NCBI RefSeq assembly: GCF_026898155.1
Contig: NZ_CP114029.1
Coordinates: 2,274,001 to 2,338,000 of the forward strand
Reading direction: 5' to 3'
DNA length: 64,000 nucleotides
Source of the DNA: Jiella pelagia
GTDB taxonomy: Bacteria; Pseudomonadota; Alphaproteobacteria; Rhizobiales; Rhizobiaceae
A program made the translations under genes and the position numbers. A model generated the notes under the pieces. The model saw nothing but the letters and a program-made list of their open reading frames with translations, did not search any database and was not told the origin of the DNA. Numbering within the stretch: position 1 is the stretch's first letter; every line of letters starts with the position of its first letter. Shown piece by piece: positions 429 through 57,753 of the stretch.

Positions 429-1893
429 ATGTTTGGCAAGCGCGGAAACGAAAAGGCGCTCCCCCGCAACGTCGCGACGATGCCGCGGCCGGCCCCGGCC
501 CCGTCCGGGTCGCAGCCCGTGGCGCCCGCCCCGGCACCGCGGCAGGCGCCGCCGGCGTCCGCGCCCGCGCCGGCACAGCGCGGCGCCGGCGAACGGACGC
601 CGGAATACTACGACCGCAAGAGCCAGGTCTTCGCGGCGCTGATCGACACGATCGACCTGTCGCAGCTCGCCGGCATGGAGCAGGATGCCGCCCGCGAGGA
701 AATCCGCGACATCGTCAACGACATCATCGCGATCAAGAACTTCGCCATGTCGATCGCCGAGCAGGAGGAACTGCTCTCCGACATCTGCAACGATGTTCTC
801 GGCTACGGCCCGCTCGAGCCGCTGCTCGCCCGCGACGACATCGCCGACATCATGGTCAACGGCATGCAGCAGACCTTCATCGAGGTCGCCGGCAAGGTGC
901 AGGAGACCTCGATCCGCTTCCGCGACAACCAGCAGCTCCTCAACATCTGCCAGCGCATCGTCAGCCAGGTCGGCCGGCGCGTCGACGAGACCTCGCCGAT
1001 CTGCGACGCGCGCCTGCCGGACGGTTCGCGCGTCAACGTCATCGCCCCGCCGCTCGCCATCGACGGCGCGGCGCTGACGATCAGAAAGTTCAAGAAGGAC
1101 AAGCTGACTCTCGACCAGCTCGTCCAATACGGCTCGATCACGCCGGCCGGCGCCGAGATCCTGCAGATCATCGGCCGTGTCAGATGCAACATCGTCATCT
1201 CCGGCGGCACCGGCTCCGGCAAGACCACCCTTCTCAATTGCCTGACCCGCTACATCGATTCCGATGAGCGCATCATCACCTGCGAAGACTCGGCCGAGCT
1301 GCAGCTGCAGCAGCCGCATGTCGTCAGGCTTGAAACCCGCCCGCCCAACATCGAGGGCGAGGGCGAGATCACCATGCGCGACCTCGTCAAGAACTGCCTG
1401 CGCATGCGCCCCGAGCGGATCATCGTCGGCGAGGTGCGCGGACCGGAGGTGTTCGATCTCCTCCAGGCGATGAACACCGGCCATGACGGCTCGATGGGCA
1501 CGATCCACTCCAACTCGCCGCGTGAGTGCCTGAACCGCATGGAATCGATGATCGCCATGGGCGGCTTCTCGCTGCCCTCGCGCACGGTGAAGGAGATCAT
1601 CACCGGCTCGGTCGACGTCATCGTCCAGGCCGCGCGCCTGCGCGACGGCTCGCGCCGCATCACCCACATCACCGAGGTGATCGGCATGGAGGGCGACGTC
1701 ATCACCACACAGGACCTCTTCGTCTACGAGATCCTCGGCGAGGACGCGAGCGGCAAGCTGATCGGCCGGCATCGCTCGACCGGCATCGGCCGGCCGGCCT
1801 TCTGGGACCGGGCGCGCTACTTCAACGAGGAGCAGCGGCTCGCCCGGGCGCTCGACGCGAGCCTCCACCGACAACGCGGATGCGGGCAACTGA
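429..1893 (+). CDS. cpaF: CpaF/TadA secretion ATPase of the Tad pilus (frameshift near the 3' end)
   Basis: Hexameric type II/IV secretion ATPase that powers Flp pilus assembly at the inner membrane. After correction it has 487 residues, a normal length. A Pro/Ala-rich N-terminal linker (residues 15-55) precedes the N-terminal domain. Walker A is [14 protein letters not shown], followed by the Asp box [11 protein letters not shown], Walker [14 protein letters not shown] and a His box around [14 protein letters not shown]. The reported sequence has GAGCCTC at 1859-1865; read as GAGCTC the frame continues to [11 protein letters not shown] and stops at 1891, three bases before tadB. Uncorrected, the frame runs on to 2975 as a meaningless tail across tadB. 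The start has AGGAG seven bases upstream. Confidence 0.95.
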
Positions 1894-1896
1894 GCC

Positions 1897-2904
1897 ATGG
1901 ACACCGGCACGCTCATCCTCTTCGTCCTCCTGTCCACCGTCGCGGCAGGTGGCCTGACCTTCGCCATCGTGCAGCCGACGCTCGCCCGCGAGAAGAAGAT
2001 CGAGCAGCGGCGCGGCACGATTGCGCGCAGCGAAAACGACCGCCAGGCGCACAAGGCCAATCGCGACCGGCTGCAGGAGCAGGTCAAGCGCCGCAAGACC
2101 ATCCAGAACTCGCTGAAGGATCTCGAAGTTCGCCAGCGCGAGCACGACAAGCACGTCGCCAAGGTGCCGCTGAAGCGGCGGCTGGAACAGGCCGGCTGGT
2201 CGATCAGCGTCAGCCAGTTCTGGCTGCTCGGCGCAGGTCTCGGCCTGTTCGCAGGCGTGCTCTGCTTCGTCTTCGGCGCGCCGATCTTCCTCTGCCTCGG
2301 CGCGATGGTGATCGCCGGGCTCGGCTTGCCGCGCTTCCTGCTCGCCCGGGCTCGCAAGAAGCGCTTCGCCGCCTTCACCCAGGAATTTCCCAACGCCATC
2401 GACCTGATCGTGCGCGGCGTCAAATCCGGCCTGCCGCTGAACGACACCCTGCGGATGGTCTCCTCCGAGACGTCCGAACCGGTTCGCTCGGAATTTCGCC
2501 GCATCGTCGAGAGCCAGCAGATGGGCATGTCCATCGGCGACGCGGTCGAACGGCTCTATCGCAACATCCCGACCTCCGAGGCGAACTTCTTCGCCATCGT
2601 CATCGGCATCCAGGCCCAGGCCGGCGGCAATCTGTCCGAAGCACTCGGCAACCTGTCCCGGGTGCTGCGCGAGCGCAAGAAGATGCGCGACAAGATCCAG
2701 GCGGTGTCGATGGAGGCGAAGGCCTCCGCCGGCATCATCGGCGCCCTGCCGGTGCTCGTCTTCGTCCTCGTGACGCTGACCAATCCCGAGTACATCAGCC
2801 TGCTCTACACCAACATCTGGGGTCAGATCCTGATGGGCATCAGCGCCTTTTGGATGACCCTCGGCGTGCTGGTGATGAAGAAGATGATCAATTTCGACTT
2901 CTGA
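1897..2904 (+). CDS. tadB: TadB inner-membrane platform protein of the Tad pilus
   Basis: A 335-residue T2SS F-domain (GspF-like) membrane protein that forms, with TadC, the inner-membrane platform for Flp pilus assembly. An N-terminal membrane segment (residues 4-25) is followed by a charged, coiled-coil-like stretch (30-85). A hydrophobic pair lies at about 105-150, then the conserved cytoplasmic F domain with NAIDLIVRGVKSGLPL and QAQAGGNLSEAL, and two C-terminal membrane helices. It starts three bases after the corrected cpaF stop, so the two are translationally close. It ends 63 bases before tadC. The frame is intact. Confidence 0.95.
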   Translation: MDTGTLILFVLLSTVAAGGLTFAIVQPTLAREKKIEQRRGTIARSENDRQAHKANRDRLQEQVKRRKTIQNSLKDLEVRQREHDKHVAKVPLKRRLEQAGWSISVSQFWLLGAGLGLFAGVLCFVFGAPIFLCLGAMVIAGLGLPRFLLARARKKRFAAFTQEFPNAIDLIVRGVKSGLPLNDTLRMVSSETSEPVRSEFRRIVESQQMGMSIGDAVERLYRNIPTSEANFFAIVIGIQAQAGGNLSEALGNLSRVLRERKKMRDKIQAVSMEAKASAGIIGALPVLVFVLVTLTNPEYISLLYTNIWGQILMGISAFWMTLGVLVMKKMINFDF

Positions 2905-2967
2905 GCAAGGACGTCGCGGCCAGACTGCGCGCGTTTGCCGGAGAGCCGTTCAAAAGGTCCGCCCGTC

Positions 2968-3955
2968 ATGGATGAGATACTGAAAACCGTCGGACTGTCG
3001 ACACAGCTCGTCCTCGCCGCCCTCGTCGCGATCGGCGTCTTCACCTCGCTCCTTGCGGTCGCGCTGCCGGCCATCGGGGGCAGCAAGCTGAAGACGCGCA
3101 TGAAGGCGGTGGCGCTCGAGCGCGACCAGATCCGCGCCCGGGAAAGAGCCCGGCTCGCCTCGGAAAAGGAGCGCAGCCGCGGCCTGCGCCAGACGGACAA
3201 CCGCGGCTTTGCCGGCGCCGTGGTCGAGCAGCTCAATCTGCGCAAGGCGCTGGTCGACGACAAGACGGTCGCGACCTTGCGGGCCGCGGGCTATCGCGGC
3301 CAGCGGCCACTGACGATGTTCCTGTTCGCCCGGGTGGCGCTGCCGCTGGTCTTCCTGGCCGCCGCCGCCTTCTACATCTTCGGTCTCGGCCTTCTCGCGG
3401 ACTGGCCGATGGCGGCCCGCATCCTCATCGTTCTGATCGCGGCCTATTTCGGCTTCTACATCCCGGTCATCCTGGTCAAGAACACCGCGAGCAAGCGTCG
3501 CATGTCGATTGCGCGGGCCTGGCCGGACGCGCTCGACCTCCTGCTCATCTGCGTGGAATCGGGCAATTCCATCGAGGCGGCGTTCCGCCGGGTGGCCGAG
3601 GAGATCGGCATCCAGTCGATCCCGCTCGCCGAGGAACTCATCCTCCTGACCGCCGAGGCTCTCCTTCCTGCCCGACCGCAAGGTCGCCTATGAGAACCTC
3701 GTGGCGCGGACCGGCCTCGAAGGCGTCAAGTCGGTCGCCACGGCACTGATCCAGGCGGAACGCTACGGCACGCCGCTCGGCCAGGCGCTGCGCGTCATGT
3801 CCCAGGAAAACCGCGACATCCGCATGAACATGGCCGAGAAGAAGGCCGCCGCCCTGCCGCCGCAGCTGACCGTGCCGATGATCGTCTTCTTCCTGCCGGT
3901 GCTGTTCGTCGTCATTCTCGGGCCGGCGGTGATCCGTCTCCTCGGGCTCGACTAG
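2968..3955 (+). CDS. tadC: TadC inner-membrane platform protein of the Tad pilus (one frameshift)
   Basis: Second GspF-type platform protein, 328 residues after correction. It has an N-terminal membrane helix (about residues 8-32), a charged linker with KERSRGLRQTDNRG, two membrane helices near 115-165, the F domain with DALDLLLICVESGNSIEAAF, and a last membrane helix ending FVVILGPAVIRLLGLD. The frame breaks at GAGGCTC (3655-3661). As GAGCTC it reads TAELSFLPDRKVAYENL, the expected TadC sequence. The ATG at 2968 is preferred over an in-frame TTG at 2935 because it begins directly before the membrane helix. It is the last gene of the tad run visible here and is followed by a dispersed repeat. 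Confidence 0.93.
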
Positions 3956-4052
3956 AGCGGGATGCGGCGAGGCTCCGCTCATCATCGCGCCCTGTCTTCC
4001 AGTTTGCGCAGGATCTCTTCCGAAAACCGGTTCCCACTTTTCGGGATCATGC
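3954..4052. repeat. Dispersed intergenic repeat, copy 1
   Basis: About 100 bases between tadC and the convergent solute-binding protein gene. One end is AGAGCGGGATG, overlapping the tadC stop codon. The other end is ACCGGTTCCCACTTTTCGGG followed by ATCATGC. The same block, inverted and with a diverged middle, lies at 26366-26467. Such elements are common between genes in Hyphomicrobiales; that statement is from general knowledge, not from a search. It may also serve as a bidirectional transcription end. Confidence 0.8.
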
Positions 4053-4081
4053 CTTGACCGGCGGCAGCTTCGGCCGCGCGG

Positions 4082-5683: not shown

Positions 5684-8190
<2,507 letters not shown>

Positions 8191-9087: not shown

Positions 9088-9090
9088 ACT

Positions 9091-10811
9091 CTAACGCATC
9101 TCCAACAGCGGGATCAGGATCGAGAAGGAAGCGCCCCCGAGCGGGCCCTTCTCCTCGACGACGATTTCGCCCTGGTGCAGCTCGACGATCTTCGCAACGA
9201 TCGACAGCCCGAGCCCGGTCGAGCTTTCGCCGGCGGTCGGCTGGGCCGATAGCCGCTGGAACCGGCCGAACAGGCGGGCCGTATCTTGGCTGTTGAGGCC
9301 GGGGCCGGAGTCCGAGACCGTCACCCGCGCCTGACCGTCGAGGCGCGCCGCCTCCACCCGGACCTCGCCGCCGAGGGGGGTGTATTTCAGGGCGTTGCTG
9401 ACGAGATTGTCGATCGCCTCGGCCAGCCGGTCCAGATCGCCCTCGACGGCGAGCGGACCGTCGGCCGCGATGGTGAGCTGCTGCTCCTTCCTTTCGGCGA
9501 GCATGCGGCTGAGTTCGGCGGTCGTCGCGGCGATCGCCGCAAGATCGACGGGGCGCCGCTCTACCGAGATGTCGAGGGCATCGGCGAGGGCGTCGGCGAT
9601 CGACATATCGACGATCCGGGTCATCCGCTCGGCGGAGGCGCGGATGTGGCCGACCTGCTTGGCGAAGCGCTCGCGAAGCGGATCCTCGACGCTCTCGGTG
9701 AGGGTCGCCATCATCTCACTGCGTCCGAGAATGACCGCGATCGGGTTCTTCAGGTCGTGGGCAATGGTGCCGAGGATCTCGTTCTTGAAGGCGTTGACGC
9801 GCTTCAAGAGCGCCCCTTGCGCCTCCAGCCGCTCGTTGGCGCCGGCAAGCTCCTGCGTGCGCCGCGCGACCCTTTCCTCCAGCTCCTCGTTGGCGAGGCG
9901 CAGCTCGTCGTAGAGGCGGGCATTGTCGAAGGCGATGGCGAGCTTGGCGGAAAAGACAGAGACGAGCGCGGCCTGGGTTTCGGTGAGATCGTCCTCCGTC
10001 GCCAGCGCCACCAGGATCTCCGCGCCGCTGCCGGTCTTGACGAACAGGCAGACCAGCCCGTCGCTGCGGACCGGCCGGCCCGCGGCGGCGGCCGTCGCGA
10101 ACAATCCGCTCCGGTCGATGCCGTTCTCGCCGTCGGCCTCGAACTTGCCGAGGCCGGCGAGGACGAGCGGATCGGCCCCGCCGGTCTCGCGCATGATCAA
10201 AATGCCGTCGGTCTCGATCTCCAGAAGCGCGGAGATCTGGATGAGCACGCCCTGGGCCAGCGTCTTCAGCGAGCGGTCGTCGAACAGCGAGGCCGAGGCG
10301 CCGACGATCATCTCGAGGCCGATCCGGGTATCGTCGAGACGCTTCAGATGGTCGTAGCTGCGCAACGCGGCGGTGAGCGTCGTGAACAGCTTGTCGGCCG
10401 TCAGCTCGGTCTTGGCCTTGTAGTCGTTGATGTCGTAGTCGACGACGACCTGGCGCTCGGGGGCCTGGCCGGGCTGGCCGGTTCGCAGGATGATGCGGAT
10501 GAGCCTCGTTCCTCAGCTCCTCGCGGATCGCCTTGGCGAGCTTCAGCCCGGCGTCCTCGGTCTCCATGACGACGTCGAGAAGGACGACGGCGGTGTCGGG
10601 ATTGGCCTTGAGGAGGCTCGAAGCCCTCCGCGGCGGAATGGGCGCCGATGAGTTCGAGGCCGTAGCCGTGAATGGCGAAATGGCGGAGCGCAAAGCGCGT
10701 CCCTTCGTGCACGGCCTCGTCGTCGTCGATGACGGCGAGTTTCCAGCCGGTCTTGGCCCCCGGCTCGGCGCGAGCCTCGGGTTCGGCAAATTCCAGAAAA
10801 TCACTCGGCAT
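9091..10811 (-). CDS. DUF3369-type histidine kinase with N-terminal receiver (two frameshifts)
   Basis: Corrected length 572 residues, no membrane helix. An N-terminal receiver-like domain (about 22-145) keeps VIDDDEAVHEG, Asp in VVLLDVVM and Lys in NDYKAKTEL. It is followed by a DUF3369/GAF-like region (about 150-310), a coiled coil, the H box TIAHDLKNPIAVI, and HATPase motifs NLVSNALKYTP, SDSGPGL and STGLGLSIV. Both breaks are at the same motif: GAGGCTC at 10613-10619 restores EGFELLKANPDTA and GAGCCTC at 10504-10510 restores RNELIRIILRTGQ. It ends three bases before the response regulator, which is its likely partner. The stimulus is not evident. Confidence 0.92.
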
Positions 10812-11677: not shown

Positions 11678-12503
11678 ATGCAGATATTCGACCAACTCGA
11701 CCAGGAACTGGATCGATGGACGGCCGAGGGCCGCGCCGTGCCGCTGTGGTGGCGGGACGACGACGCGGCGACGGCGACGCCGGCGCTGACGCGGCTGGTC
11801 GCCATGGCGCGGCGCCACCGCCTGCCGCTGGCGATCGCCGCCGTGCCGGCGAGGATGGAGCCCGACCTCGTCGGCGCCTTGTCGGCCCCCGGCGTCACCG
11901 TGCTGCAGCATGGCTTCGCCCATGTGAACCACGCAGCGCCCGGCCAACGCGCCGTCGAATGCGGCGGCGACAGGCCGGCGAAGGCGGTGCTGGCCGAGGC
12001 TCGGCGAGGGCATGCGCACCCTGATGCGCGAATTCGGCGCGAGCTTCCTGCCGATCATGGTGCCGCCGTGGAACCGGATCGACCCGGCGGTCGCCGCCGG
12101 CCTGCAGCAGCAGGGCTATCTCGGCCTGTCGAGTTTTGGCCCGCGGCACTTCGAGGGCCAGGGGGATGGAGGCAAGGCCGGCGAGGGCTCGACGGAAGAG
12201 GCGCCGCTCGTCCTGCCGCCGCGCCTTGCCGCGATCAACGCCCATCTCGATCTTCTGACCTGGAAGGGCGGCCCGGCCTTCGCGGGCGCGGATAAGCTGA
12301 TGCGGCTGTTCGCCGAGCGCCTGGAGGACCGGCGGCTCGGCCGCACCGATCCGGCCGAGCCCTTCGGCATCCTCACCCACCATCTCGCCCATGACGAGGC
12401 GACGTGGTCGTTCCTCGAGCGCCTGCTCGGCCGGCTGGGTTCGCATCCGGCGATCCGCTTCCTGCCGATCACGACGCTTCTCGCCGAAACGCCGGTCCGC
12501 TGA
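11678..12503 (+). CDS. Polysaccharide deacetylase-like protein (one frameshift)
   Basis: Corrected length 274 residues, cytoplasmic by appearance. It resembles the NodB-fold deacetylase relatives found beside glycosyltransferase genes: an early Asp-rich strand VPLWWRDDDAATATPAL (metal-binding Asp pair), QHGFAHVNHA (metal-binding His), VPPWNRI and a late GILTHHLAHDEATW. These are the usual places of the NodB catalytic motifs. The frame breaks at GAGGCTC (11996-12002); as GAGCTC it reads AVLAELGEGMRTLMREFG. The next gene starts one base after the stop, so the two are coupled. The substrate is unknown; a role in the adjacent glycan pathway is inferred from position. Confidence 0.82.
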
Positions 12504-18757: not shown

Positions 18758-20753
18758 ATGAGTGACGCTGCGGTGCTGTCGTCCCGAGCATCGCCTTTGG
18801 TCCGTAACGACCGCGCCGAGACGGCGCTTCTGTCGGTCGAGGATCTGTCCGTCGAGTTCCGCTCCATGGCCGGTGTCACCAAGGCGGTGTCGGGGTTCTC
18901 GATGTCGATCGCGCCCGGGCGCGCCGTCGCGCTCGTCGGCGAATCCGGCTCCGGCAAGTCGGTGACCTCCCAGGCGATCCTCGGGCTCCTGCCGAAGAAC
19001 GGCGTGATCACCTCGGGCAAGATCCTGTTTCGCGACGCAGATCTCGGTCTGGTGGATCTCGCGGCGATCCCGCGCGCCTCGCCGAAATTCCGCGCGATCC
19101 GCGGCCGCTCCATCGCCATGGTCTTCCAGGAGCCGATGACGGCGTTTTCGCCGCTCCACACCCTCGGCGACCAGATCGGCGAGATGGCGGCGATCCACCG
19201 CAAGGCCGGCAAGGCCGAGATCCGCGAGCTGACGGCCGAGACCTTGCGGCTCGTGCGCTTTCCCGAGCCCGAGCGGGCGGTGCGGATGTATCCGTTCGAG
19301 GCTCTCCGGCGGGCTGCGGCAGCGCGCGATGATCGCCATGGCGCTGATGTGCCGGCCGCCGCTGTTGATCGCCGACGAGCCGACGACCGCGCTGGACGTC
19401 ACGCTGCAGGCGCAGATCCTCAAGCTCCTGAAGGACCTCCAGGCCGAACTCGACATGGCGGTGCTCTTGATCACCCACGATCTCGGCGTCGTCGCCAACC
19501 TGGCCGAGGAAGTCGTCGTCATGCATCACGGCCGGATCGTCGAGTCGGGTCCCTCCGAGACGATCTTCTCGACCCCGAGCCATCCCTATCTCGTCGCGCT
19601 GATGAAGGCCGTGCCGGACTTTTCCGACGCCGAGCGGCGCCGGCTGACGCCGATCCGCGAGATCAGGATCGACGCCGACGTCTTGGTCAAGCCGAAGGCG
19701 AGCGGGCCGAAGGGCGAGACGCTGATCGAGGCGCGAGGTCTGCAGAAGAGCTTTTCGCTGCGCGGCGACCGCCGCCTCGTCGGCCGGGCGCCGGCGCGGG
19801 TGATCCGGGCGCTGGCCGACGTCTCGCTGACGGTGAAGCGCGGCGAGTGCCTCGGCCTCGTCGGCGAATCGGGTTCCGGCAAGACGACGCTGGCAAGGGC
19901 CCTGATGCGCGCCGTGCCGGTCGATGACGGGGCGATCGTCCTGCATGGCGAGGATGGGCCGGTCGATCTCGTTTCCGCCGACCGCGAGGCGATGTTCAAG
20001 GTCCGCAAGCGGATGCAGTACATCTTCCAGGATCCGTTCTCCTCGCTCGATCCGCGCATGACCGTCGGGGCGATCCTGTCGGAGCCCCTGGAGATCCACG
20101 ATCTCTGCAAGCCCGCCGAGCGGCGCGAGCGGGTGGCGCGGCTGTTGTCAGCCGTCGGGCTCGATCCGAGCTTTGCCGGGCGCTACCCCCACAGCTTCTC
20201 CGGCGGCCAGCGCCAGCGCATCGGCATCGCCCGGGCGCTCGCGCTCGAGCCGGAACTCCTCATCTGCGACGAGCCGGTGGCCGCCCTCGACGTCTCTGTC
20301 CAGGCGCAGATCCTCAATCTTCTGAAGGATCTGCAGCGCCTGTCGGGCCTCACCTACGTGTTCATCACCCACAATCTCGCGGTGGTGAACCACATCGCCG
20401 ACCGGATCGTCGTGATGTGTGACGGCGCCATCGTCGAGCTCGCGCCGCGGGCCGAATTGTTCCGCCGGCCGCTGCATCCCTATACCAAGCTGTTGATCGA
20501 GGCGGTGCCCCACGCAGATCTTTCCCGGCCGCTCGACTTTTCCAACCTGCCTGAAGCCGGCCTGATCGGCCGCAGGGATTGGCCGGCCCCGTTCACGGTC
20601 GCCGCCGACAAGCCGCTGCCGCCGCTTCTGGAAGCAAGCCCCGGCCATTTCGTCCGGGCCGCCGATCTGAGCTTCCTTGACGCTCGTGCCGGCCGGGCGG
20701 GCGTCGTCGCCGCCGTCGCGAGCGCAGTGGAAGCGCTGGAGACGCCGGCATGA
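18758..20753 (+). CDS. Double-ATPase ABC transporter protein, peptide-import (YejF/DppDF) type (one frameshift)
   Basis: Corrected length 664 residues, two complete ABC ATPase domains in one chain. Domain 1 has Walker A GESGSGKSVTS, signature LSGGLRQRAMIAMAL and Walker B LLIADEPTTALD. Domain 2 has GESGSGKTTLARA, SGGQRQRIGIARAL and LLICDEPVAALD. Both have oligopeptide-type C-terminal extensions (HPYLVALMKAVP and HPYTKLLIEAVP). The break at GAGGCTC (19298-19304) lies in the first signature motif; as GAGCTC it reads PFELSGGLRQR. No peptide permease gene is adjacent. Its stop overlaps the start of the degenerate exporter by four bases, an unusual pairing. Confidence 0.92.
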
Positions 20754-23454
20754 AGATGCCCGACGAGGCTCGACGAGAGCGTCTTTGCCTATGTCTGGCG
20801 CTATACGCGGAGCCAGCAGCTCTGGCTGTTCGGCGTCCTCGCCCTCTCGCTGCCGCTCTACTACCTGACGCTCGACCTGCCGAAGCGCATCGTCAACGGG
20901 CCGATCCAGGGCGACTGGACGGCGGGCGAAACCCAGACGCTGTTCGACTTCTCGATCCCGTTGCCCGGCTTTCTCGGCGGCGGCGAGATCGATTTCTTCG
21001 ACGGGATCGAACTCGACCGGCTCGGCGTGCTGACGGCGCTCTCCCTGGCCTTTCTGTTCTTCGTGATCGTCAACGGGCTCTTCAAGTTCTACCTCTCGAC
21101 CTACAAGGGCAAGCTCGGCGAGCGACTGCTGCGCCGCCTGCGCTATCAGCTGGTCGACCGGGTGCTGCGCTTCCCCTCCGGCCGCTTCAAGCAGGTGCGC
21201 GGCTCCGAGATCGCCTCGATGATCAAGGACGAGACCGAGCCGGTCGGCGGTTTCGGCGGCAGCGCCTTCGCCGATCCGGCGCTGTTGATGAGCCAGGCGC
21301 TGACGGCGCTGTTCTTCATCGTCCTGCAGAATTTCTGGCTCGGCCTCGTCGCCGGGACGATCGTTCTCGTCCAGATCGTCATGATCCCGCGCATGCGGCG
21401 GCGGCTCGTCGTCCTGGCGCGTTCGCGCCAGCTGACGGCGCGGATCTTTTCCGGACGCATCGGCGAGGTGGTGGAAGGCATCGCCTCGATCCGCACCAAC
21501 GACACGTCCAACTACGAGCGGGCCGAGGCTCGGCGAGCGGCTCGGGCGGATCCTGAAGATCCGCTACGACTTCTATCAGTGGAAGTTCTTCGTCAACTTT
21601 CTCAACAATCTGCTCGCCCAGATGACGCCGTTCATCTTCTATCTCGGCGGCGGCTATCTGGTCATCACCGGGCAGCTCGACATCGGCCAGCTCGTCGCCG
21701 TCATCGCCGCCTACAAGGACCTGCCGGCGCCGTTGAAGGAGCTGATCGCCTGGGACCAGTACCGGGTCGACGTCCAGTCGAAATACGCCCAGATCCGCGA
21801 GCAGTTCGTCATGTCGGACCTCGTCTCGGCGGAGACCCAGAGGGTCAGTTTCGACGCGCCGCCGCGGCTCGACGGCGAGGTGAGCGTATCCGGCCTGAAG
21901 ATCTGCGACGAGTCCGGCAACGAGTTGCTCTACCCGACGACGCTGAAGGTGGCGCCGGGCGAGGCCGTGGCGTTGGTCGGCCCGCCGGGCGGCGGTGGGG
22001 AATATCTCGCCGATGCGCTGGTGCGGCTCGTCCAGCCGGCCGGCGGGCGCATCGCCTTTGCCGGCACGACGCTCGATTCCATGCCGGACGCCATTCCCGG
22101 CCGGCGCCTCGGCTATTCGGCCTCAGGGCTGTTCCTGGCGCAGATGAGCGTCCGCGAGGCCCTGACCTACGGGCTCAAGCACGTGCCGATGCGCTGCGAG
22201 GAGCGCAGCGGCAGGGACGAGGCGTCGCGGCTGGAGGAGGCGCGGCTGTCCGGCAATCTCGACCTCGACATCCGCGACGACTGGATCGACTACGAGGCGG
22301 CGGGCGTCTCGGGACCGGAGGCGCTTCCGGCACGGCTTGCCGAGGTGCTCGGGATCGTCGAACTGAGATCGGAGATCGCCCGCTTCGGCCTGCGCGGCAA
22401 GCTGCCGGAGGTGCTCGCCGACGGCGTGTCCGACCAGATCCTCACGGCCCGCGCGCGGTTCCGCCAGAGGCTGATCGAGGGCGGCGACGAGGACTATTTC
22501 GAGAGCTTCGACAGGAGCCGTTATTCCGACTACGCCTCGGTCTTCGAAAATCTCGTCTTCGGCACCGCCGATCCGGATGCCGATGCCGAGCGGCCGCTGG
22601 CCGACCGGCCCTCGGTCAAGGCGGCGCTCGGGGCGAGCGGCCTCGACGAGCGGCTGTTCGTCATGGGGCGGCAGATCGCCGAGACGCTGGTCGAGATCTT
22701 CGGCGATCTGTCCGCCGACAATCCGCTGCTCGACGACATCGACCTGATGTCGCCCGAGGACGTCGAGCGCTACCGGGCGGCGCTGCGCCGGGTCGACGGC
22801 GAGGGCAAGCGCGACGACAAGGACCGCCACGCCTTCCAGCGTCTCGCCTTCGGCTATGTCGAGCCGCGGCACCGGCTGGGACTGCTCGACGCCGACCTGC
22901 AGCAGGCGATCGTTGCGGCGCGCGATCATTTCTCAGATGGCCTCGGGCCCGATCTTTCCGGGGCGGTGTTCCTGCACGATCCGGCCGGGGTGAACCGCGC
23001 CGCGAGCCTGCAGGACAACATCCTGTTCGGCCGCATCGTCACCCGCTATGCCGAGGCGCAGGGGCGGATCAACGCCGTTCTCGCCGATACCCTGCGCGAG
23101 ACCGGCCTCTACGACGTCGTCTTCGATCTCGGCCTTGCCTTCGACATCGGCAGCGGCGCCAAGCGGCTCGCCGCCAGCCAGCAGCAGAAGCTGACGCTGG
23201 CGCGGGCGCTTTTGAAGCGGCCCGATCTCCTCGTCCTCAACCGGCCGCTTTCGGCCCTCGACGGCGAGACGCAGCGGCGCATCGCCGCCGCCGTCCTGAA
23301 ATCCCGGCAGGAACTCGGCGTCGAGCGCCAGACGATCGTCTGGGTGCTCGCCCATGCCGACCACGCCGATCTCTTCGACCGCACGGTGGCCTTCCGCGAG
23401 GGGCGGATGCAGGATCTCGAACATCAGGCCGCGCCGCCGCTGGAGGTGTCGTGA
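20750..23454 (+). CDS. ABC exporter-like protein with degenerate, enlarged ATPase domain (two frameshifts)
   Basis: Corrected length about 900 residues. The N-terminal part is a type I exporter membrane domain (helices near 20-40, 90-110, 185-225 and 300-350, with the cytoplasmic GERLLRRLRYQLVDRVLRFP segment). The ATPase domain is abnormal. Walker A reads ALVGPPGGGGEYLADAL with no Lys. The signature region reads RLAASQQQKLTLARAL in place of LSGGQ. Walker B reads LLVLNRPLSALD, with Asp to Asn and the catalytic Glu to Arg. About 290 extra, mostly acidic residues lie between the Walker A and signature regions. Breaks at GAGGCTC 20765-20771 and 21525-21531 restore PDELDESVFAY and AEELGERLGRIL... 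in frame. The protein is probably unable to hydrolyse ATP by itself; transport or scaffold roles are open. Confidence 0.85.
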
Positions 23455-28763: not shown

Positions 28764-29636
28764 GCCGCGTCGCCGGCCTTGTCGGCATCGCTGCCGCCGT
28801 CCTGTGGAATGCCCGCCTCGGGGATGACGTAGCCGGCATAGGCAGGGATCGACAGCGCCACGGGCACGCCCTCGACGGTCAGGGCCGCATCGCGGGCCGC
28901 GGCACCCGCCAGCCGGTCGATCCGCACCATCGCCAGGGCGTTCTCGTCCGCGACGGACAGGATCTCGCCGACGACCTTCTCCCCCGCCCGAATTTCGCTG
29001 TTGGCGATCAGCGGCGTTGCGGCCGTCACCAGCATCAGCCGGCGCCGGGCGGTGCCGCGGTGCTGCATGCGCGAGACCACCTCCTGGCCGACGAAACAGC
29101 CCTTTTTGAAGGACACCCCGCCATTGAAATCCATCAAGACGTCGTGGGGAAAGACGTCGGAGGCGGGATAGTCCGCGCCGAGGCTCGGCAACGCCGGACG
29201 CGATGCGAAGGGCGCGAAACTCCTGCCGCTCGGCCTCGGAGATGCCGGTGGGCGCTTCACCATAGGCACGAAAGACGCCGGCGTCGGGAAAGCGGCGGTC
29301 GGTGAGGCCGCCCTCCGGCGCATCCTCGCCCCAGACGGCGAAGACCTGCGCGTCGCTTTCGGCGATCTCGACCTTGCGCCTCAGCCGATAGAGCGTCAGC
29401 CGCTTCTTCAGCTCCGCCCGCATTTCCGCCGGCGCATCGAGCCGCAAGCCGCCGTCGATCCGGCTGACCAGGAACTCGAACATCACCTTGCCCTGCGGCG
29501 TGAGCAGCGCGGCCGGGCTGACGGCCTCGCTGGTCACGGCGCCGACATCGGAGGTGACGAGGCCTTGCAGGAAGTCTTCGGTCTCGGGGCCTGTAAGGGT
29601 CAGGACGGCGCGGTCGGGGAGGGGCGTGAAGGGCAT
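28760..29636 (-). CDS. ygfZ: Folate-binding YgfZ/IbaG-type iron-sulfur repair protein (one frameshift)
   Basis: Corrected length 291 residues. It is a GcvT-like tetrahydrofolate-binding protein, known from E. coli YgfZ to help maintain certain Fe-S enzymes. The hallmark is KGCFVGQEVVSRMQHRG (K-G-C-Y/F-x-G-Q-E). The N-terminus reads LTLTGPETEDFLQGLVTSDV, with the family LQGL pattern. The break at GAGGCTC (29180-29186) reads, as GAGCTC, ASGVAELGADYPASDVFPHD. It overlaps the HD hydrolase gene by four bases. A 172-base divergent spacer with the ankyrin gene should hold its promoter. Confidence 0.93.
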
Positions 29637-31438: not shown

Positions 31439-32296
31439 CGGAAAATCTCCCATCTTCGGCAGGGGAGGGATTTCCCTCCCGCAAGGGCGAAGATAGCGCC
31501 GAACGGGTCGCGGCGGGAGGGGCGCCGGTGATCGCGGCGCGCGGCCTCGACCTCGTCTTTCCGACGGCCGACGCGCCGGTGCATGCGTTGAAGGACATCG
31601 ATCTTGAGATCTTTCGCGGCGAGTTCGTCTCGCTGATCGGCCCGTCCGGCTGCGGCAAGACGACCTTGCTGCGGGTCGTCGCCGATCTCGAACAACCCAC
31701 CGGCGGGACGATCACCGTCAACGGCATGAGCCCCGACGAGGCGCGGCGCCAGCGCGCATACGGATACGTCTTCCAGGCGGCGGCGCTCTATCCCTGGCGG
31801 ACGATCGAAAAGAACATCGCGCTGCCCCTCGAGATCATGGGGATCGACCGGGCCGAGCAGCGGCGGCGGATCGACACGGGGCTCGATCTCGTCGGGTTGG
31901 CGGGCTTCGGCAGGAAGTTTCCCTGGCAGCTTTCCGGCGGCATGCAGCAGCGGGCCTCGATCGCCAGAGCGCTCTCCTTCGATCCGGATCTCCTGTTGAT
32001 GGACGAGCCCTTCGGGGCGCTCGACGAGATCGTCCGCGACCATCTCAACGAGGAGCCTCCTGAAGCTCTGGGCGAAGACCGACAAGACCATCGTCTTCGT
32101 CACCCACTCGATCCCCGAGGCGGTGTTCCTGTCGACCCGCATCGTGGTGATGAGCCCGCGACCGGGGAGAATTCACGAGATCATCGATTGCGACCTCGGG
32201 CCGGACCGACCGCTCGACATCCGGGATACACCGGAGTTTCTGGCGATTGCGCATCGCGTGCGGGAAGGCTTGCGGGCGGGGCACGGGTATGATTGA
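31429..32296 (+). CDS. ABC transporter ATPase of nitrate/sulfonate/taurine type, without neighbours (one frameshift)
   Basis: Corrected length 288 residues. Walker A is IGPSGCGKTTLLRV, Q loop YVFQAAALYPWRT, signature LSGGMQQRASIARAL, Walker B LLLMDEPFGALDE and H loop IVFVTHSIPEAVFLS. The PWRT segment and ending match SsuB/TauB/NrtD relatives. The frame breaks at GAGCCTC (32053-32059); as GAGCTC it reads LNEELLKLWAKTDK. A GTG at 31528 with GGAGG before it is an alternative start that would avoid the overlap with the cupin gene. No permease or binding-protein gene is adjacent, so its partners are elsewhere or lost. Confidence 0.9.
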
Positions 32297-37380: not shown

Positions 37381-38014
37381 TCAGAGGTCTTCGCGCAGCA
37401 TCTGGTCGATCTCGCGCCGTTCCTTGCGCGAGCGGATCTGCACGGCGTCGATGGTGCGCGGCTTGAGTTTCAGGATGCCGTCGTCCTCGCCGAGGTCGTA
37501 GGCGCGCTTGGCGCCGATGCTGACCTCGTCCGGCCCATAGACGCCTATGATGTAGACGGTGAATGCCTTGAGACCCTCCCAGCCATTGTGCGGGCCGGGA
37601 GGGTTGTCCGGTCCCTTGTAGTCGAGGACGTGGGTGACGATCGCCGAGAAGCTGCCGAGGTCGCGCATGGCGCCGGACGCGATCGGACCCTGGCGTGTCT
37701 GCTGCTTGATGTCCCCGGAAGCGCCGGTATTCTCGATTTCCTCGATTTCGGTGACGGGATAGCGGAGGCTCGCCGGCGCCGGTCTCCAGCACGACGAGGA
37801 TGCTCCGGATGAAGATCGTGTCGCGGCTCATATTGGTGACGAGGCAGCGCGCCTCGAGATCGGACCGCATGCCGCGGGTGATCAGAAGCCGCGGCCGCCG
37901 GTCGCGGCTGAAGCTGGAATACAGCATCTGCAGGTAGAACGCCCAGATTCCCAGCATGCCGAGATTGGCGAAGACGTTGATCAGATCCGCGTTTGCAGTG
38001 ATCCACTCCAGCAT
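37381..38014 (-). CDS. Membrane-anchored protein of unknown function (one frameshift)
   Basis: Corrected length 210 residues. A single N-terminal membrane helix (about residues 10-30, LINVFANLGMLGIWAFYLQML) is followed by a soluble part with predicted strands (CLVTNMSRDTIFIRSILVVLE) and a charged end (RSRKERREIDQMLREDL). I do not recognise a named family, although this helix-plus-beta arrangement occurs in many alphaproteobacterial hypothetical proteins. The break is at GAGGCTC (37765-37771); as GAGCTC it reads AGELRYPVTEIEEIEN. GGAAGA lies before the ATG at 38014. It is convergent with copA. Confidence 0.75.
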
Positions 38015-40093: not shown

Positions 40094-41318
40094 ATGACGA
40101 CGATGCCTGGAATCGAGCAATATTCGTTGGATGCGCGGCGCTTGCGTTTCGTCGCTGCAGCGTTGATCGCCGCGGCGCTGCCGCTGTCTGCCTCGGCGCA
40201 GGAGCCGGCTGGCGCGACCAGCGCCCCCAAGCCGCCGAGCATTACGGTGATCGCCGCTGCGACCGGCGAGATCGTCGAGACCGTCGACGTCACCGGCACC
40301 TTGATGCCGCGCGAGACGGTGTCAGTCGGCGCCGATGTCGAGGGCTTGAGGATCGTCGAACTCTCGGCCGACGAGGGCGACGCGGTCGAGAAGGGGGCGG
40401 TTCTGGCGCGGCTGGAAACCGACATGATCGATTCCAACATCGAGGCTCAACGCCGCCCAGATCGCCCGCGCCGACGCGGCGATCGCCCAGGCCGAGGCAC
40501 AGATCGCCGAGGCCGAGTCCACGGTGACGCAGGCCAATGCGGCCCTCGATCGTTCGCGGCCTCTGGCCCAGAAGGGCATCATCGGCCAGGACGTGCTCGA
40601 CCAGCGGGTCGCCGCGGCCTCCAGTGCCATGGCCCGGCTGAGCGCCACCCAGCAGGGCCTTGCCGTCGCACGGGCCGACAAGGCCGCCCAGATCGCCCAG
40701 CGCGATCAATGGCTTCTCAGGAAATCCAAGGCCGAGATCAAGGCGCCGACGTCGGGGCTTGTCCTGTCGCGCAGCGCCAGGCTCGGCGCGATCGTCTCGG
40801 CGGGCTCGGGCAGCCTGTTCGAGATCGCCCGCGACGGGCTGATCGAGCTTGAGGCCTCGGTCTCGGAAACCGTCCTCGCCCGGCTCGACGAGGGCCAGCC
40901 GGTGAAGGTTTATCTCGCCGGGCGGCGGGAGCCGGTGACTGGCGAGATCCGGCTGATCTCGCCGCGGGTCGACCAGGCGACGCGGCTCGGCATGGTCAAC
41001 ATCGCCCTGCCGAAGGATGCCGCGGGCCTGCGTGTCGGCGCCTTCGCGCGGGGCGTCATCGAGGTCGCGCGGCACGAGGGCGTGCTGGTGCCGCGCACAG
41101 CCGTCGTCTTCGAGGGCGAGGATGCCGTCGTCCAGGTGGTGGATAACGGCGTGGTCAGGCGGCGCGACGTCGCCCTTGGCCTGACCACCGCCGATACCGT
41201 CGAGGTCCTTGAGGGGGTTGCGGCGGGCGAGACCGTCGTCGCGACGGCCGGCGCCTTCGTGCGCGACGGCGACAGCGTGACGCCGGTGAAGATGGCCGAG
41301 AGCGGGGGCAAGCGATGA
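40094..41318 (+). CDS. RND efflux periplasmic adaptor (membrane fusion protein; one frameshift)
   Basis: Corrected length 407 residues. A signal peptide or anchor (RFVAAALIAAALPLSASAQ) precedes a lipoyl-like half-motif (GDAVEKGAVLARLETD), an alpha-helical hairpin rich in Ala/Gln (ARADAAIAQAEAQIAEAEST), the second lipoyl half (AEIKAPTSGLVL) and beta-barrel domains ending GETVVATAGAFVRDGD. The break at GAGGCTC (40442-40448) as GAGCTC reads SNIELNAAQIARADAAI, an uninterrupted hairpin. The start is uncertain (GTG 40073, ATG 40094 or 40103). It overlaps the pump gene by four bases. Confidence 0.92.
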
Positions 41319-46550: not shown

Positions 46551-48453
46551 ATGGCCGAGAATGGATCGACCGCGAACGGCGCCACCCAGCCGAGCGCCAA
46601 GCCCGACGGAACCGGCGGCTTCACGGCCCAGCCCCACCGCAGCGCCCCCGGCCAGAACGGCAAGGCCTACACCTTCGTCGACCACACCTTCGACGTGGTG
46701 GTGGTCGGGGCCGGCGGTGCCGGCCTGCGCGCCACCCTCGGCGCCGCCCAGGCCGGCCTTCGGACCGCCTGCATCACCAAGGTCTTCCCGACCAGATCCC
46801 ACACCGTCGCGGCCCAGGGCGGCGTCGCCGCCTCGCTCGGCAACATGGGCAAGGACGACTGGCGCTGGCACATGTACGACACCGTCAAGGGGTCGGACTG
46901 GCTGGGCGACCAGGACGCCATCGAATATCTTGTGCGCAATGCGCCCCAGGCGGTCTACGAGGCTCGAGCATTTCGGCGTGCCCTTCTCGCGCACCGAGGA
47001 CGGCCGGATCTACCAGCGGCCCTTCGGCGGCATGACCACCGAGTTCGGCCAGGGGCCGGCGGCCCAACGTACCTGCGCCGCCGCCGACCGGACCGGCCAC
47101 GCCATCCTCCACACGCTCTACGGCCAGTCGCTGCGCCATTCGACCGAGTTCTACATCGAATATTTCGCCATCGACCTGATCATGGACGAGGAAGGCGCCT
47201 GTGTCGGCGTCGTGGCGCTCTGCCTCGACGACGGCACGCTGCACCGCTTCCGCGCCAAGAAGACCATCCTGGCAACCGGAGGCTACGGCCGCGCCTATTT
47301 CTCCGCCACCTCGGCCCATACCTGCACCGGTGACGGCGGCGGCATGGTGCTGCGCGCCGGCCTGCCGCTGCAGGACATGGAGTTCGTGCAGTTCCATCCG
47401 ACCGGCATCTATGGCGCCGGCTGCCTGATCACCGAGGGCGCCCGCGGCGAGGGCGGTTACCTCACCAATTCCGAGGGCGAGCGCTTCATGGAGCGCTATG
47501 CCCCCTCGGCCAAGGACCTCGCCTCGCGCGACGTCGTCTCGCGCTCGATGACCATGGAGATCCGGGACGGGCGCGGCGTCGGCAAGGACGGCGACCACAT
47601 CTTCCTGCATCTCGACCATCTCGACCCGGCGGTGCTGCACGAGCGGCTGCCGGGCATCTCGGAGTCGGCCCGCATCTTCGCCGGCGTCGACGTGACGAAA
47701 GAGCCGATCCCGGTGCTGCCGACCGTCCACTACAACATGGGCGGCATCCCGACGAACTTCCACGGCGAGGTGCTGACCAAGAAGGACGGCGATCCTGATG
47801 CGGTGGTTCCTGGCCTGATGGCCGTCGGCGAGGCCGGCTGCGTCTCGGTCCACGGCGCCAATCGCCTCGGCTCGAACTCGCTGATCGACCTCGTCGTCTT
47901 CGGCCGCGCCGCGGCGCTCAGATGCGCCGAGACGGTGGCGGCCGGCGAAAGCCAGCCGGACCTGCCGGCCGGGGCCGGCGACAATTCCCTCGCCCGTCTC
48001 GACCGCTTCCGCTACGCAAGCGGCTCGACCCCGACGGCGCAGCTGCGCGACAACATGCAGCGCACCATGCAGTCGAACTGCGCGGTGTTCCGCACCGGCG
48101 AGATCCTCGAGGAAGGCCACCAGAAGATCCACGACGTCTGGCGGGCCTCGGACGACATCCGCGTCACGGACCGATCGCTGATCTGGAACACCGACCTCGT
48201 CGAGACGATGGAATACGACAATCTCATCGCTCAGGCAGTCGTCACGATGGATTCGGCTCGCAACCGCACGGAATCGCGCGGCGCTCATGCCCGCGAGGAC
48301 TTCCCCGACCGAGACGACGCCAACTGGATGAAGCACACGCTCTCCTTCTGCGACACCGTCGGCAAGACGGTGACGCTGGAGGACCGGCCGGTGCACACCT
48401 ACACCCTGTCGAACCAGATCGAGTATATCGAGCCGAAGAAGCGGGTTTACTGA
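46551..48453 (+). CDS. sdhA: Succinate dehydrogenase flavoprotein subunit (one frameshift)
   Basis: Corrected length 633 residues, including about 40 extra N-terminal residues rich in Ala/Gly/Pro. FAD-binding [20 protein letters not shown] is followed by the covalent-flavin region [10 protein letters not shown]-like [15 protein letters not shown] (His attached to FAD). Later blocks are [20 protein letters not shown] and the active-site [10 protein letters not shown] and [10 protein letters not shown]. The break at GAGGCTC (46959-46965) as GAGCTC reads [18 protein letters not shown], the normal sequence. A real frameshift here would destroy complex II, which argues for a sequence error. No sdhB follows; the next gene is a chemoreceptor. 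Confidence 0.96.
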
Positions 48454-48841: not shown

Positions 48842-51104
<2,263 letters not shown>

Positions 51105-51363
51105 TCCGCTTTCTTCTGGCAGATCGAGGCCATCGTCTGGGCCCGCCGCGTTCGCGCGCGGCGGGCTCTTCGTTCGTGTCCGCCCGATGCAACGTCATGT
51201 GGCGGCGGATGCGGCGGAGCCGCCTGCGGCGAGAGCTCGATCCCCTGCAGTCCGCAGAATAGTCGGTCATCAAGACGGCTTGCTACTAAACTGTAAGTTT
51301 TCGGTAGCGAATCGTTGGTAAGAGCCGAATGGTCCGAAACGCTGGAAACAGGGATCTCAGTCG

Positions 51364-55711: not shown

Positions 55712-55747
55712 CACCAAGAGCTCGGGAGAATGCCCCGGGCTCTTGGC
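54674..55747 (+). repeat. Long direct repeat, copy B
   Basis: Partner of 52261-53334, same length and no indels. It includes the end of the chemoreceptor gene at 53762 and its terminator. Confidence 0.88.
55714..55746 (+). terminator. Hairpin terminator after chemoreceptor 3
   Basis: The same hairpin as at 53301 with one change, CCAAGAGCTCGGG in the left arm, giving a G-U pair in RNA. It contains one of the few unaltered GAGCTC sequences. Confidence 0.75.
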
Positions 55748-56071
55748 ATGAAGCGCCCACGCGGGGATTGAATGTAAACCCGTCGGCGCGGTCAAAGACC
55801 GGGGCCAACGGTCTGAGGTGGCAGACGCGTCGCGTCGGTATCGGGCGGTAGATCGCCCGATACCCGCAACTCAATCTCAATCTGCGACGGCGGGGACGGC
55901 GATTGCCGTCCCCGCTTGCGTTCGTCGATGCCCGCTTTGAGCATCCGGGGGCGGTGTTTCGGGGTCTCCTCCCGAATGGGAGGTTAAACTCTCTTCATGC
56001 TTCCGGAGAACCTTGCTGCGCGGACCGGCTCGTCCATTTGCTGCAGGAGCGAACAGCAAGGGATCCAGACA
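55747..56071. other. Spacer between chemoreceptor 3 and the dehydrogenase
   Basis: 325 bases without a gene. It holds a hairpin at 55890-55915 (GCGGGGACGGC / GCCGTCCCCGC, loop GATT). That hairpin resembles the one after chemoreceptor 4. The promoter for 56072 should be in the second half. Confidence 0.6.
55890..55915. terminator. GC-rich hairpin
   Basis: An 11-base perfect stem GCGGGGACGGC / GCCGTCCCCGC with a four-base loop, between chemoreceptor 3 and the dehydrogenase gene. It could act as a second terminator or an mRNA end stabiliser. Confidence 0.55.
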
Positions 56072-56852
56072 ATGCAGATGGAAGGTAACGTCGCCGTCGT
56101 CACCGGTGCGAGGCTCGGGGATCGGCCGGGTGATCGCCGAGACCTTCGTGCGCGAGGGCGGCAAGGTGGCGATCTGCGACATCAACATCGAGGGTGCCGA
56201 AAAGGTCGCGTCCCAATTGCGGGCGAAGGGCGGCGAGGCGATGGCGGTCGCCATGGACGTCACCGACGAGGACGCGGTGAACCGCGGCGTCGATCAGGTG
56301 GCGGAGCGCTACGGCCGGATCGACACGATGGTCTCCAATGCCGGCATCCAGATCGTCCATCCGATCGAGGAGTTCCCCTATGCGGAGTTCCGCAAGCTGG
56401 TGGCGATCCATCTCGACGGATCGTTCCTTTTGACCAAGGCCTGCGTCAAGCACATGTATCCGCGGAAGTCCGGATCGCTGATCTATATGGGCTCGGTCCA
56501 CAGTCACGAGCCGTCGGCGCTGAAGAGCGCCTATGTCGCGGCCAAGCACGGCATTCTCGGCCTTTCCCGGGTCATGGCCAAGGAAGGCGCCAGGCACGGT
56601 GTCCGGTCCAACACCATCTGCCCTGGCTTCGTGAAGACGCCGCTGGTCGAAAAGCAGATCCCCGAACAGGCACAGTCACTCGGCATCTCCGAGGAAGAGG
56701 TCGTGGACAAGATCATGCTCGGCGAGACGGTGGATCAGGAATTCACCACCATGGACGACGTCGCCGAGGTTGCGTTGTTCCTGGCGAGCTTCAAGTCGAA
56801 CGCCCTGACCGGTCAGTCGATCGTGCCGAGCCACGGCTGGTACATGGCCTGA
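56072..56852 (+). CDS. Short-chain dehydrogenase, probable 3-hydroxybutyrate dehydrogenase (one frameshift)
   Basis: Corrected length 259 residues, classical SDR. With GAGGCTC (56110-56116) read as GAGCTC the cofactor loop becomes [17 protein letters not shown], the canonical TGxxxGIG; as printed it is destroyed. Further signs are SNAGIQ (NAG), the active-site Ser in [20 protein letters not shown] (Y-x3-K) and [10 protein letters not shown]. The end [15 protein letters not shown] resembles the S-H-G-W-x-M ending of 3-hydroxybutyrate dehydrogenases, which interconvert 3-hydroxybutyrate and acetoacetate with NAD. AAGGGA lies before the ATG. It is flanked by chemoreceptor genes on both sides. 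Confidence 0.85.
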
Positions 56853-57155
56853 CGCTCCATCCTGCCGCCTTGGGGCGGGCAGGACGGAGGACTTTCATCT
56901 CGCCGCTCTCCAATCCCTCGTCGTTTGCCCGGCGGGGGATTTTTGTGTCTGCCTGAGCATGATCGACAGTCAAGCAGACAATCAATCTGAATAAAAATCG
57001 TCAAAAATTACAAAATCCAGATGATGAACTGACGTAATCAATCATAAATGCAATTTTCATTATATTGCCTCAATGTATAAAGCGTCGACTTGTTCTTCGT
57101 TTGTCGGCTAGTTGCCGATCCCGATCGGCTGCAACCATCCTGGAGAAGAATTGCC
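56853..57155. other. A/T-rich promoter region of the secreted protein/chemoreceptor pair
   Basis: 303 bases without a gene. From about 56960 to 57110 the composition is far more A/T-rich than the surroundings (runs such as AATAAAAATCGTCAAAAATT). This is likely a regulated promoter for the genes at 57156 and 57782; no specific operator is assigned. TGGAGAAG precedes 57156. Confidence 0.6.
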
Positions 57156-57753
57156 ATGAAAACTTCGCAGATCTGCGCGGGCCTGTTGTTCGCCGCCATG
57201 GCCGGTGCCGCCGGTATTTTTCCCGCAGCCGCCGAGGGACCGCATGTCGCTCCGATCACCGAACTGGTCGGTTCCAAATTGAAGGCCGCAATCGCCGATC
57301 CGGTGGTCATCCAGGCGATCAAGGCTCAGAACGCTGCGAACCAGAGCCTTTCCCAAGCGGACATCGATGCGCTGGATCAGACATGGCGCAGCGAGGCCGA
57401 CGCCGGCGGCGGCGAGCTGATGGACAAGACCCTGAAGGCTCCGGCCTCGGCCTATCTGAAGAGTGTGCAGAACGATGCGGCTGGTCTGATCACCGAGGTC
57501 TTCGTCATGGACGCGCGTGGCCTCAATGTCGGCCAGAGCGATCCGACCTCCGACTATTGGCAGGGCGACGAGGCCAAGTGGCAGAAGACCTACGGGAGCG
57601 GTGGCGAGGCGATCTTCGTCGACGAGATCGAGCAGGACGAGTCGACCCAGATGCTGCAGTCCCAGGCGAGCTTCACGATTGTCGATCCCGAAACCAACGA
57701 GCCGATCGGCGCGGCGACGGTCGGCGTCAATCTCGACATGCTCGAGCCTCTGA
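57156..57753 (+). CDS. Secreted Cache/PDC-like sensor protein (one frameshift at the stop)
   Basis: Corrected length 198 residues. A signal peptide ([20 protein letters not shown], cleavage near AAA-EG) precedes a mature domain with [53 protein letters not shown] and [21 protein letters not shown]. This resembles the ligand-binding fold of Cache sensors but has no membrane or signalling part. GAGCCTC at 57744-57750, read as GAGCTC, gives the ending NLDMLEL and a stop at 57751; as printed the frame runs on into the chemoreceptor gene. The receptor starts 28 bases later, so the two are probably co-transcribed and functionally paired. Confidence 0.85.

What the first reader, a model, noticed from the sequence alone, without database searches (positions are those of the whole stretch)
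1859..57750. Seventeen frameshifts all sit at GAGGCTC/GAGCCTC and all vanish if the site is read as GAGCTC
Seen directly: fifteen genes are broken at 1859, 3655, 6595, 10504, 10613, 11996, 19298, 20765, 21525, 29180, 32053, 37765, 40442, 46959, 50183, 56110 and 57744 (first base of each heptamer). In every case deleting one central base gives the palindrome GAGCTC and restores a recognisable family sequence (for example the SDR loop, the ABC signature, SdhA). Both strands and both G and C duplications occur. Only about eight unaltered GAGCTC sites were found by eye (for example 15559, 20446, 24166, 26447, 30452, 51234, 55718, 60191). Random decay cannot choose one hexamer. The likely cause is a systematic base-calling or polishing error at GAGCTC, perhaps because the palindrome carries a modified base from a resident methyltransferase with this specificity.
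Basis: partly seen in the sequence, partly recalled or inferred. Interest (0 to 1): 0.88.

Follow-up and report, generated by a model that had tools for sequence, protein, structure and literature searches.

The report
Sequencing errors at GAGCTC sites
This bacterial genome record shows one extra base at most GAGCTC sites, even inside genes no cell can do without, so the breaks are almost surely a sequencing error, probably triggered by a chemical mark on the DNA there, and not real mutations.

Summary
The window has 8 GAGCTC (41 expected from shuffles) and 27 GAGGCTC/GAGCCTC. At 16 of the 17 listed sites relatives could be aligned, and 86 of 86 genome-by-site comparisons lack the extra base(s); 57744 had no relative. 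Seven unlisted heptamers look genuine. Genome-wide, GAGCTC occurs 353 times (about 1,571 expected from nine Jiella genomes) and the heptamer 2,175 times (about 1,027 expected): about 1,220 hexamers missing, about 1,150 heptamers extra. In 264 kb, GAGCTC is the most depleted 6-mer and GAGCCTC/GAGGCTC the most enriched 7-mer. rpoB is broken at two such sites, rpoC at three or four, so the bases cannot be in the living genome. Best explanation: a systematic consensus error at GAGCTC. That it hits one palindrome in this genome and not in its relatives suggests a modified base. A rare C5-cytosine methyltransferase beside an MTaX1 gene is the leading candidate enzyme; a phage-type methyltransferase is another. 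Modification, specificity and platform are inferred, not shown.

The parts
418..424 (.). GAGCCTC; possible 18th affected site, between ORFs (before the TadA-type ORF at 429)
   Evidence: G006 lacks one base; G003 and G009 poorly aligned here
1859..1865. GAGCCTC with extra base, between the TadA-type ATPase part and the T2SSF-domain ORF 1897-2901
   Evidence: 3 of 3 aligned relatives lack one base
3655..3661 (.). GAGGCTC with extra base in a T2SSF-domain (TadB/TadC-like) gene
   Evidence: 3 of 3 relatives lack one base; intact relative ORF is T2SSF
6595..6601 (.). GAGCCTC with extra base in a sensor histidine kinase gene
   Evidence: 3 of 3 relatives; HisKA and HATPase_c in intact relative
10501..10507 (.). 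GAGCCTC with extra base in a histidine kinase gene with DUF3369
   Evidence: 4 of 4 relatives
10613..10619 (.). GAGGCTC with extra base, second hit in the same histidine kinase gene
   Evidence: 4 of 4 relatives lack base(s), G003 two and three others one
11996..12002 (.). GAGGCTC with extra base; gene not named (no Pfam match)
   Evidence: 4 of 4 relatives
19298..19304 (.). GAGGCTC with extra base; gene not named here
   Evidence: 9 of 9 relatives
20765..20771 (.). GAGGCTC with extra base, in the long relative ORF that carries ABC transporter domains
   Evidence: 7 of 7 relatives; frames meet one base apart
21525..21531 (.). GAGGCTC with extra base in the ABC_membrane part of the same relative ORF
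   Evidence: 9 of 9 relatives
29180..29186 (.). GAGGCTC with extra base in a CAF17/YgfZ-type gene
   Evidence: 3 of 3 relatives
32053..32059 (.). GAGCCTC with extra base in an ABC ATPase gene
   Evidence: 4 of 4 relatives
37765..37771 (.). GAGGCTC with extra base; gene not named (no Pfam match to the ORF scanned)
   Evidence: 6 of 6 relatives
40442..40448 (.). GAGGCTC with extra base, upstream of the RND permease ORF; gene not named
   Evidence: 9 of 9 relatives
46959..46965 (.). GAGGCTC with extra base in the succinate dehydrogenase flavoprotein (SdhA-type) gene
   Evidence: 9 of 9 relatives; FAD_binding_2 and Succ_DH_flav_C
50183..50189 (.). GAGGCTC with extra base in a methyl-accepting chemotaxis protein gene
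   Evidence: 5 of 5 relatives and a paralogue in the same window lack the base
56110..56116 (.). GAGGCTC with extra base in a short-chain dehydrogenase gene
   Evidence: 4 of 4 relatives; adh_short; a near-identical copy in this genome (L130) reads the same heptamer
57744..57750 (.). GAGCCTC near the 3' end of ORF 57081-57872; untested site

Best explanation
The extra bases are not in the organism's DNA. The deposited assembly (5.95 Mb in three contigs, genus Jiella) carries a systematic consensus error: about three quarters of all GAGCTC sites are written with one extra base between GAG and CTC, usually a doubled G or C. Likely mechanism: both strands of the palindrome carry a modified base that the base-caller or polisher had not learned; reads from either strand gain a base at the same point; the consensus settles on the doubled G or the doubled C at each site, and neighbouring bases decide which sites escape. 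Shown: the deficit and excess, the contrast with relatives, and the breaks in indispensable genes. Inferred: the modified base, a long-read platform, and the enzyme (leading candidate the C5-cytosine methyltransferase at G000:C1:1356652-1357947).
For: 86 of 86 comparisons at 16 of 17 listed sites lack the base(s) in relatives. Genome-wide 353 GAGCTC against 702-1945 in nine same-genus genomes and 2175 heptamers against 443-1076, with reversed-pattern controls in the normal range; scaled deficit 1218 (857-1387) and excess 1148 (1075-1259) nearly balance. Most depleted 6-mer and most enriched 7-mer in an unbiased comparison. rpoB in one piece in 3 of 3 relatives, in four pieces here, two of the three breaks at GAGCCTC; rpoC changes frame at three GAGCCTC and its match ends at a fourth, and at all four the G006 sequence has the six-base form. 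G- and C-doubled forms equally frequent genome-wide (1097 and 1078, genuine heptamers included). Escaping sites more often have an outer A (8 of 19 against 25 of 156 in relatives), as a signal-context effect would give. One rare C5 methyltransferase, absent at that similarity from 390 of 397 genomes of the order.
Against: No reads were seen, so platform and modification are inferred. Other single-base differences exist: 8 isolated extras outside heptamers (one of them GAGACTC where G006 has GAGCTC) and 5 missing bases against G006 in the rpoB region, and the third rpoB break has another context. In the other methyltransferase carriers (six genomes, 51-61% identity) the fetched stretches show no such error, though their platforms are unknown. 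Outside the genus the heptamer-to-control ratio is also about 2 or more in some genomes (G010, G018-G020), so that ratio is meaningful only within the genus.
Confidence: 0.8

Rival explanations
1. A consensus error at GAGCTC that depends only on platform, chemistry or polisher and needs no DNA modification.
For: All evidence for an error holds equally; context dependence of escaping sites.
Against: One exact palindrome is hit, not homopolymers or related words: GGGCCC and GAGCCC/GGGCTC show no matching heptamer excess. A plain platform error at so common a word would be seen in many genomes; I did not scan for that.
Confidence: 0.17
2. Real insertions: gene decay, or scars of self-restriction at GAGCTC followed by imprecise repair.
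For: Two near-identical copies in this genome carry the same heptamer at 56110 and the same GAGCTC at 55718, which an old real change would also give.
Against: rpoB and rpoC are broken; about 1,150 such events with otherwise well-kept genes; none shared with relatives.
Confidence: 0.01
3. The extra bases are real and are read past by programmed recoding during transcription or translation.
For: The site sequence is constant and the broken genes look otherwise functional.
Against: Both doubled-G and doubled-C forms occur, also within genes of one orientation (parts list; rpoB and rpoC all doubled C); there is no slippery run; genuine heptamers such as 8830, 15438 and 15510 have the same length in relatives and so are read normally.
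Confidence: 0.005

Closest known systems
Modification-mediated nanopore consensus errors (Listeria, PMC10687267; passages read)
   Same: Low-quality finished genomes whose errors sit at one short motif (GCAGC or GCTGG), linked to lineage-specific modification, cured by whole-genome amplification.
   Different: There the errors were mismatches and indels were not the source; here they are +1 insertions. Here the modification is not shown.
Dcm-site errors in nanopore consensus (Wick et al. 2019, PMC6591954; passages read)
   Same: An untrained 5-methylcytosine motif dominates consensus errors (about 70% in current callers of that time).
   Different: Other motif and enzyme; platform of the present genome unknown.
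5mC at GRGCYC in Propionibacterium freudenreichii (PMC11649196; passages read)
   Same: A methylated motif that includes GAGCTC, with digestion blocked.
   Different: Degenerate motif; here GGGCCC and GAGCCC/GGGCTC give no matching heptamer excess; no insertion error at the motif is described in the passages seen.
SacI-type restriction-modification (RE_SacI, PF09566)
   Same: Recognition of GAGCTC (recalled).
   Different: No PF09566 match in this genome, but the control genomes did not ring either, so absence is not shown.

Membership tests
Modification-induced systematic consensus error | Errors recur at one motif across the genome | tested here: met
Modification-induced systematic consensus error | Errors are not in the real sequence | tested here: met
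   by inference: relatives lack the base at 16 of 17 sites; rpoB and rpoC broken. No reads seen.
Modification-induced systematic consensus error | The motif carries a modified base | not testable with these tools
   needs native reads, SacI digestion or similar
Modification-induced systematic consensus error | Errors vanish in amplified DNA or short reads | not testable with these tools
   no reads held
Modification-induced systematic consensus error | A methyltransferase of matching specificity in the genome | tested here: inconclusive
   one PF00145 enzyme and two PF01555 enzymes; specificities unknown; other methyltransferase families not searched
Type II restriction-modification system | DNA methyltransferase gene | tested here: met
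   L148:1297-2595, PF00145 E 2.1e-56
Type II restriction-modification system | Adjacent endonuclease gene | tested here: inconclusive
   MTaX1 domain (PF20296) and a second piece in another frame; the same two pieces lie in one frame beside the methyltransferase homologue in G141 and G402, 2 of 6 carriers; nuclease nature is my reading of the sequence, no nuclease family matched
Type II restriction-modification system recognising GAGCTC | Recognises GAGCTC | not testable with these tools
   GAGCTC is not avoided in carrier G141 (4020 in 4.3 Mb); that neither shows nor excludes it
Type II restriction-modification system recognising GAGCTC | RE_SacI domain (PF09566) | tested here: inconclusive
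   no match in this genome; controls did not ring
Pseudogene decay | Breaks spread over many sequence contexts, sparing indispensable genes | tested here: not met
   breaks concentrate on one 7-mer and hit rpoB and rpoC

The most novel reading that the evidence does not exclude
Probability: 0.35. Interest if true: 0.5.

Novelty: new member of a known kind. Interest (0 to 1): 0.38.

Why it matters
About 1,150 false insertions would make a nearly closed genome look pseudogene-rich, and may explain its completeness score of 84.97; anyone reading gene loss or frameshifting from it would be misled. It also suggests that the error pattern of a finished assembly can point to a modified motif and a candidate enzyme without raw reads, which could be scanned for across public genomes.

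Tried and rejected
Window-level counts of the heptamer were not informative (z below 1); the signal appears only against relatives. The RE_SacI search was uninformative. A degenerate GRGCYC motif was considered and rejected. A second insertion motif (CTTCTG, prompted by the non-heptamer break in rpoB) is not enriched (204 against 199 in both-strand counts). The plasmid-borne methyltransferase nearest to the candidate (Amycolatopsis, 44% identity) has a neighbour not related to the two nuclease pieces. Carrier G224, with only 58 GAGCTC in 4.8 Mb, was checked for the same error in 235 kb: it avoids many palindromes and has no clear heptamer excess (43 against 32 for the reversed control). Literature: search listings (open PubMed Central only) showed no report of GAGCTC insertion errors and no description of how this genome was sequenced; that is a limited search.
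Full report
Observation. The window contains exactly 8 GAGCTC (40.9 expected from 100 dinucleotide shuffles; 17.0 by a Markov estimate) and 27 GAGGCTC/GAGCCTC (22.9 expected). All 17 listed heptamers are there, one at 10501 and not 10504.

Organism. The window lies at G000:C1:2274001-2338000 of a 5,945,794-base genome in 3 contigs, completeness 84.97. Contigs of the same-genus genomes G009, G004 and G001 have the same lengths (81,174; 41,998; 609,149) as the Jiella endophytica, J. sonneratiae and J. flava records found by sequence, so the genus is Jiella; the species is not known to me.

Test against relatives. Same-genus genomes G001-G009 were searched and stretches of five of them fetched. 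Around each of the 27 heptamers a query of about 300 bases was aligned, one best place per genome. For 16 of the 17 listed sites 3-9 genomes aligned; in 86 of 86 comparisons the relative lacks base(s), 85 by exactly one. The relatives read GAGCTC, GAACTC, GAGTTC and similar six-base forms. Rows for the named Jiella loci (3 sites) and for this genome itself were left out of that count; the Jiella rows agree. For 57744 no relative aligned. Five unlisted heptamers have equal length in all aligned relatives, two more show no missing base, two are unaligned, and 418 is uncertain. In well-aligned stretches of the window most or all isolated extra bases fall in heptamers (11 of 15, 4 of 6, 7 of 7, 9 of 9, 4 of 4 by genome). 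Protein comparison finds 28 frame-change places, 16 at heptamers, several resolved to a single base. The 12 others rest on 1-2 ORFs, except 7867-7891 (4); I take them as gene ends and shadow frames but did not settle each.

Genome-wide. GAGCTC: 353 here against 702-1945 in the nine same-genus genomes, while the reversed control CTCGAG is 2349 here (1026-3101 there). Heptamer, both strands: 2175 against 443-1076, reversed control 984 here, 476-1025 there. Scaled to the controls: expected GAGCTC 1571 (1210-1740), expected heptamers 1027 (916-1100); deficit about 1218, excess about 1148. So roughly three quarters of GAGCTC sites appear to be written with an extra base. In 264 kb of own sequence against 427 kb of relatives GAGCTC is the most depleted 6-mer (38 against 193 in both-strand counts) and GAGCCTC/GAGGCTC the most enriched 7-mer (98 against 46). 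GAGACTC/GAGTCTC rise slightly (9 against 4.3). GGGCCC, GAGCCC and their heptamers are not raised.

Why it is not real. rpoB matches as one piece in 3 of 3 relatives and as four pieces here; two of its three breaks are GAGCCTC where relatives have six bases, the third has another context. The next long ORF (rpoC by position, name recalled) changes frame at three GAGCCTC and its match ends at a fourth; at all four G006 has the six-base form. A glutamyl-tRNA synthetase-like ORF near the methyltransferase also appears to change frame at a GAGCCTC (name recalled, not compared with relatives, and many bacteria of this class are recalled to have two copies). A cell with broken rpoB and rpoC would not live. 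In the 180-kb stretch around rpoB 65 heptamers were found: 48 not aligned to G006, 9 with a gap, 8 without. In the same alignment 8 isolated extras outside heptamers (one a GAGACTC for GAGCTC) and 5 missing bases were seen.

Mechanism. A palindrome modified on both strands would mislead reads from both strands at the same point, giving doubled G or doubled C with equal chance; the counts are 1097 and 1078, genuine heptamers included. Sites that escape more often have an outer A (8 of 19 against 25 of 156). Two 97.6% identical copies in this genome treat both of their sites alike; that fits a context-determined error but would also fit an old real change. The genome has one PF00145 match, a 432-aa C5-cytosine methyltransferase; 4 of 9 same-genus genomes have other PF00145 matches. 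Relatives of this enzyme are rare: 7 of 397 genomes of the order at E up to 1e-60, this genome included. Upstream lie two pieces in different frames, one with MTaX1 (PF20296), the other with a nuclease-like ECK motif (my reading; no family matched). In G141 and G402 the two pieces match one continuous frame (a 404-aa ORF in G141 with MTaX1, followed by the methyltransferase and a Vsr gene); in the other four carriers they were not found. Here the only heptamer of that locus lies near the change of frame. So the partner gene itself seems to be hit by the error. Other candidates: a PF01555 methyltransferase beside a helicase-like ORF, phage-like by my reading; the second PF01555 match has a close counterpart in all 10 genomes of the genus and is probably the GANTC enzyme CcrM (recalled). 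Against the first candidate: the fetched stretches of the six other carriers show no such error, and GAGCTC is not avoided in G141. Methyltransferase families other than PF00145 and PF01555 were not searched.

Comparison. Motif-specific consensus errors from modified bases are established for nanopore data: PMC6591954 (Dcm sites), PMC10687267 (Listeria, mismatches, cured by whole-genome amplification), PMC12392509 (methylation as one error class); passages were seen of each. PMC11649196 reports 5mC at GRGCYC in Propionibacterium (passages). PMC9516812 mentions cytosine methylation in GAGCTC in a clade of marine viral genomes (one passage). The present case is a further member of that kind, with an insertion in place of a mismatch.

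Verdict. Error and not mutation: near certain. Modified base as cause: likely (about 0.75 to 0.8). The named methyltransferase as the source: about 0.5.

Noticed in passing
L148:1297-3875 (G000:C1:1356649-1359227); L195:8896-11835: A C5 methyltransferase with an MTaX1-containing neighbour; in G141 (L195) the same pair is followed by a Vsr gene, as an m5C restriction-modification operon would be.
   Followed up: partly
G315 and G224 (whole genomes; L185-L189, L197, L199-L218): CTCGAG is strongly depleted in G315 (159 against 728 GAGCTC); in G224 many palindromes including GAGCTC and CTCGAG are nearly absent (58 and 100 in 4.8 Mb).
   Followed up: partly
L147:417: A third frame break in rpoB has no GAGCTC-like context (GACGCTTCTGGCTC); so the assembly has at least one other kind of error.
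   Followed up: partly
G000:C1:2005378-2008303 (L130) and window 53929-56854: A duplicated stretch, 97.6% identical over 2.4 kb, with GAGCTC kept at 55718 and the heptamer at 56110 in both copies.
   Followed up: partly
L198 (G000:C1:3267000-3277000): A PF01555 methyltransferase beside a helicase-like ORF and a replication-protein-like ORF, probably in a prophage; a second candidate for the modifying enzyme.
   Followed up: no
window 1-64000: CTCGAG is the most under-represented palindrome in the window by a Markov estimate (20 against 57); it is low in G006 as well, so it is a trait of the genus and not of this assembly.
   Followed up: partly
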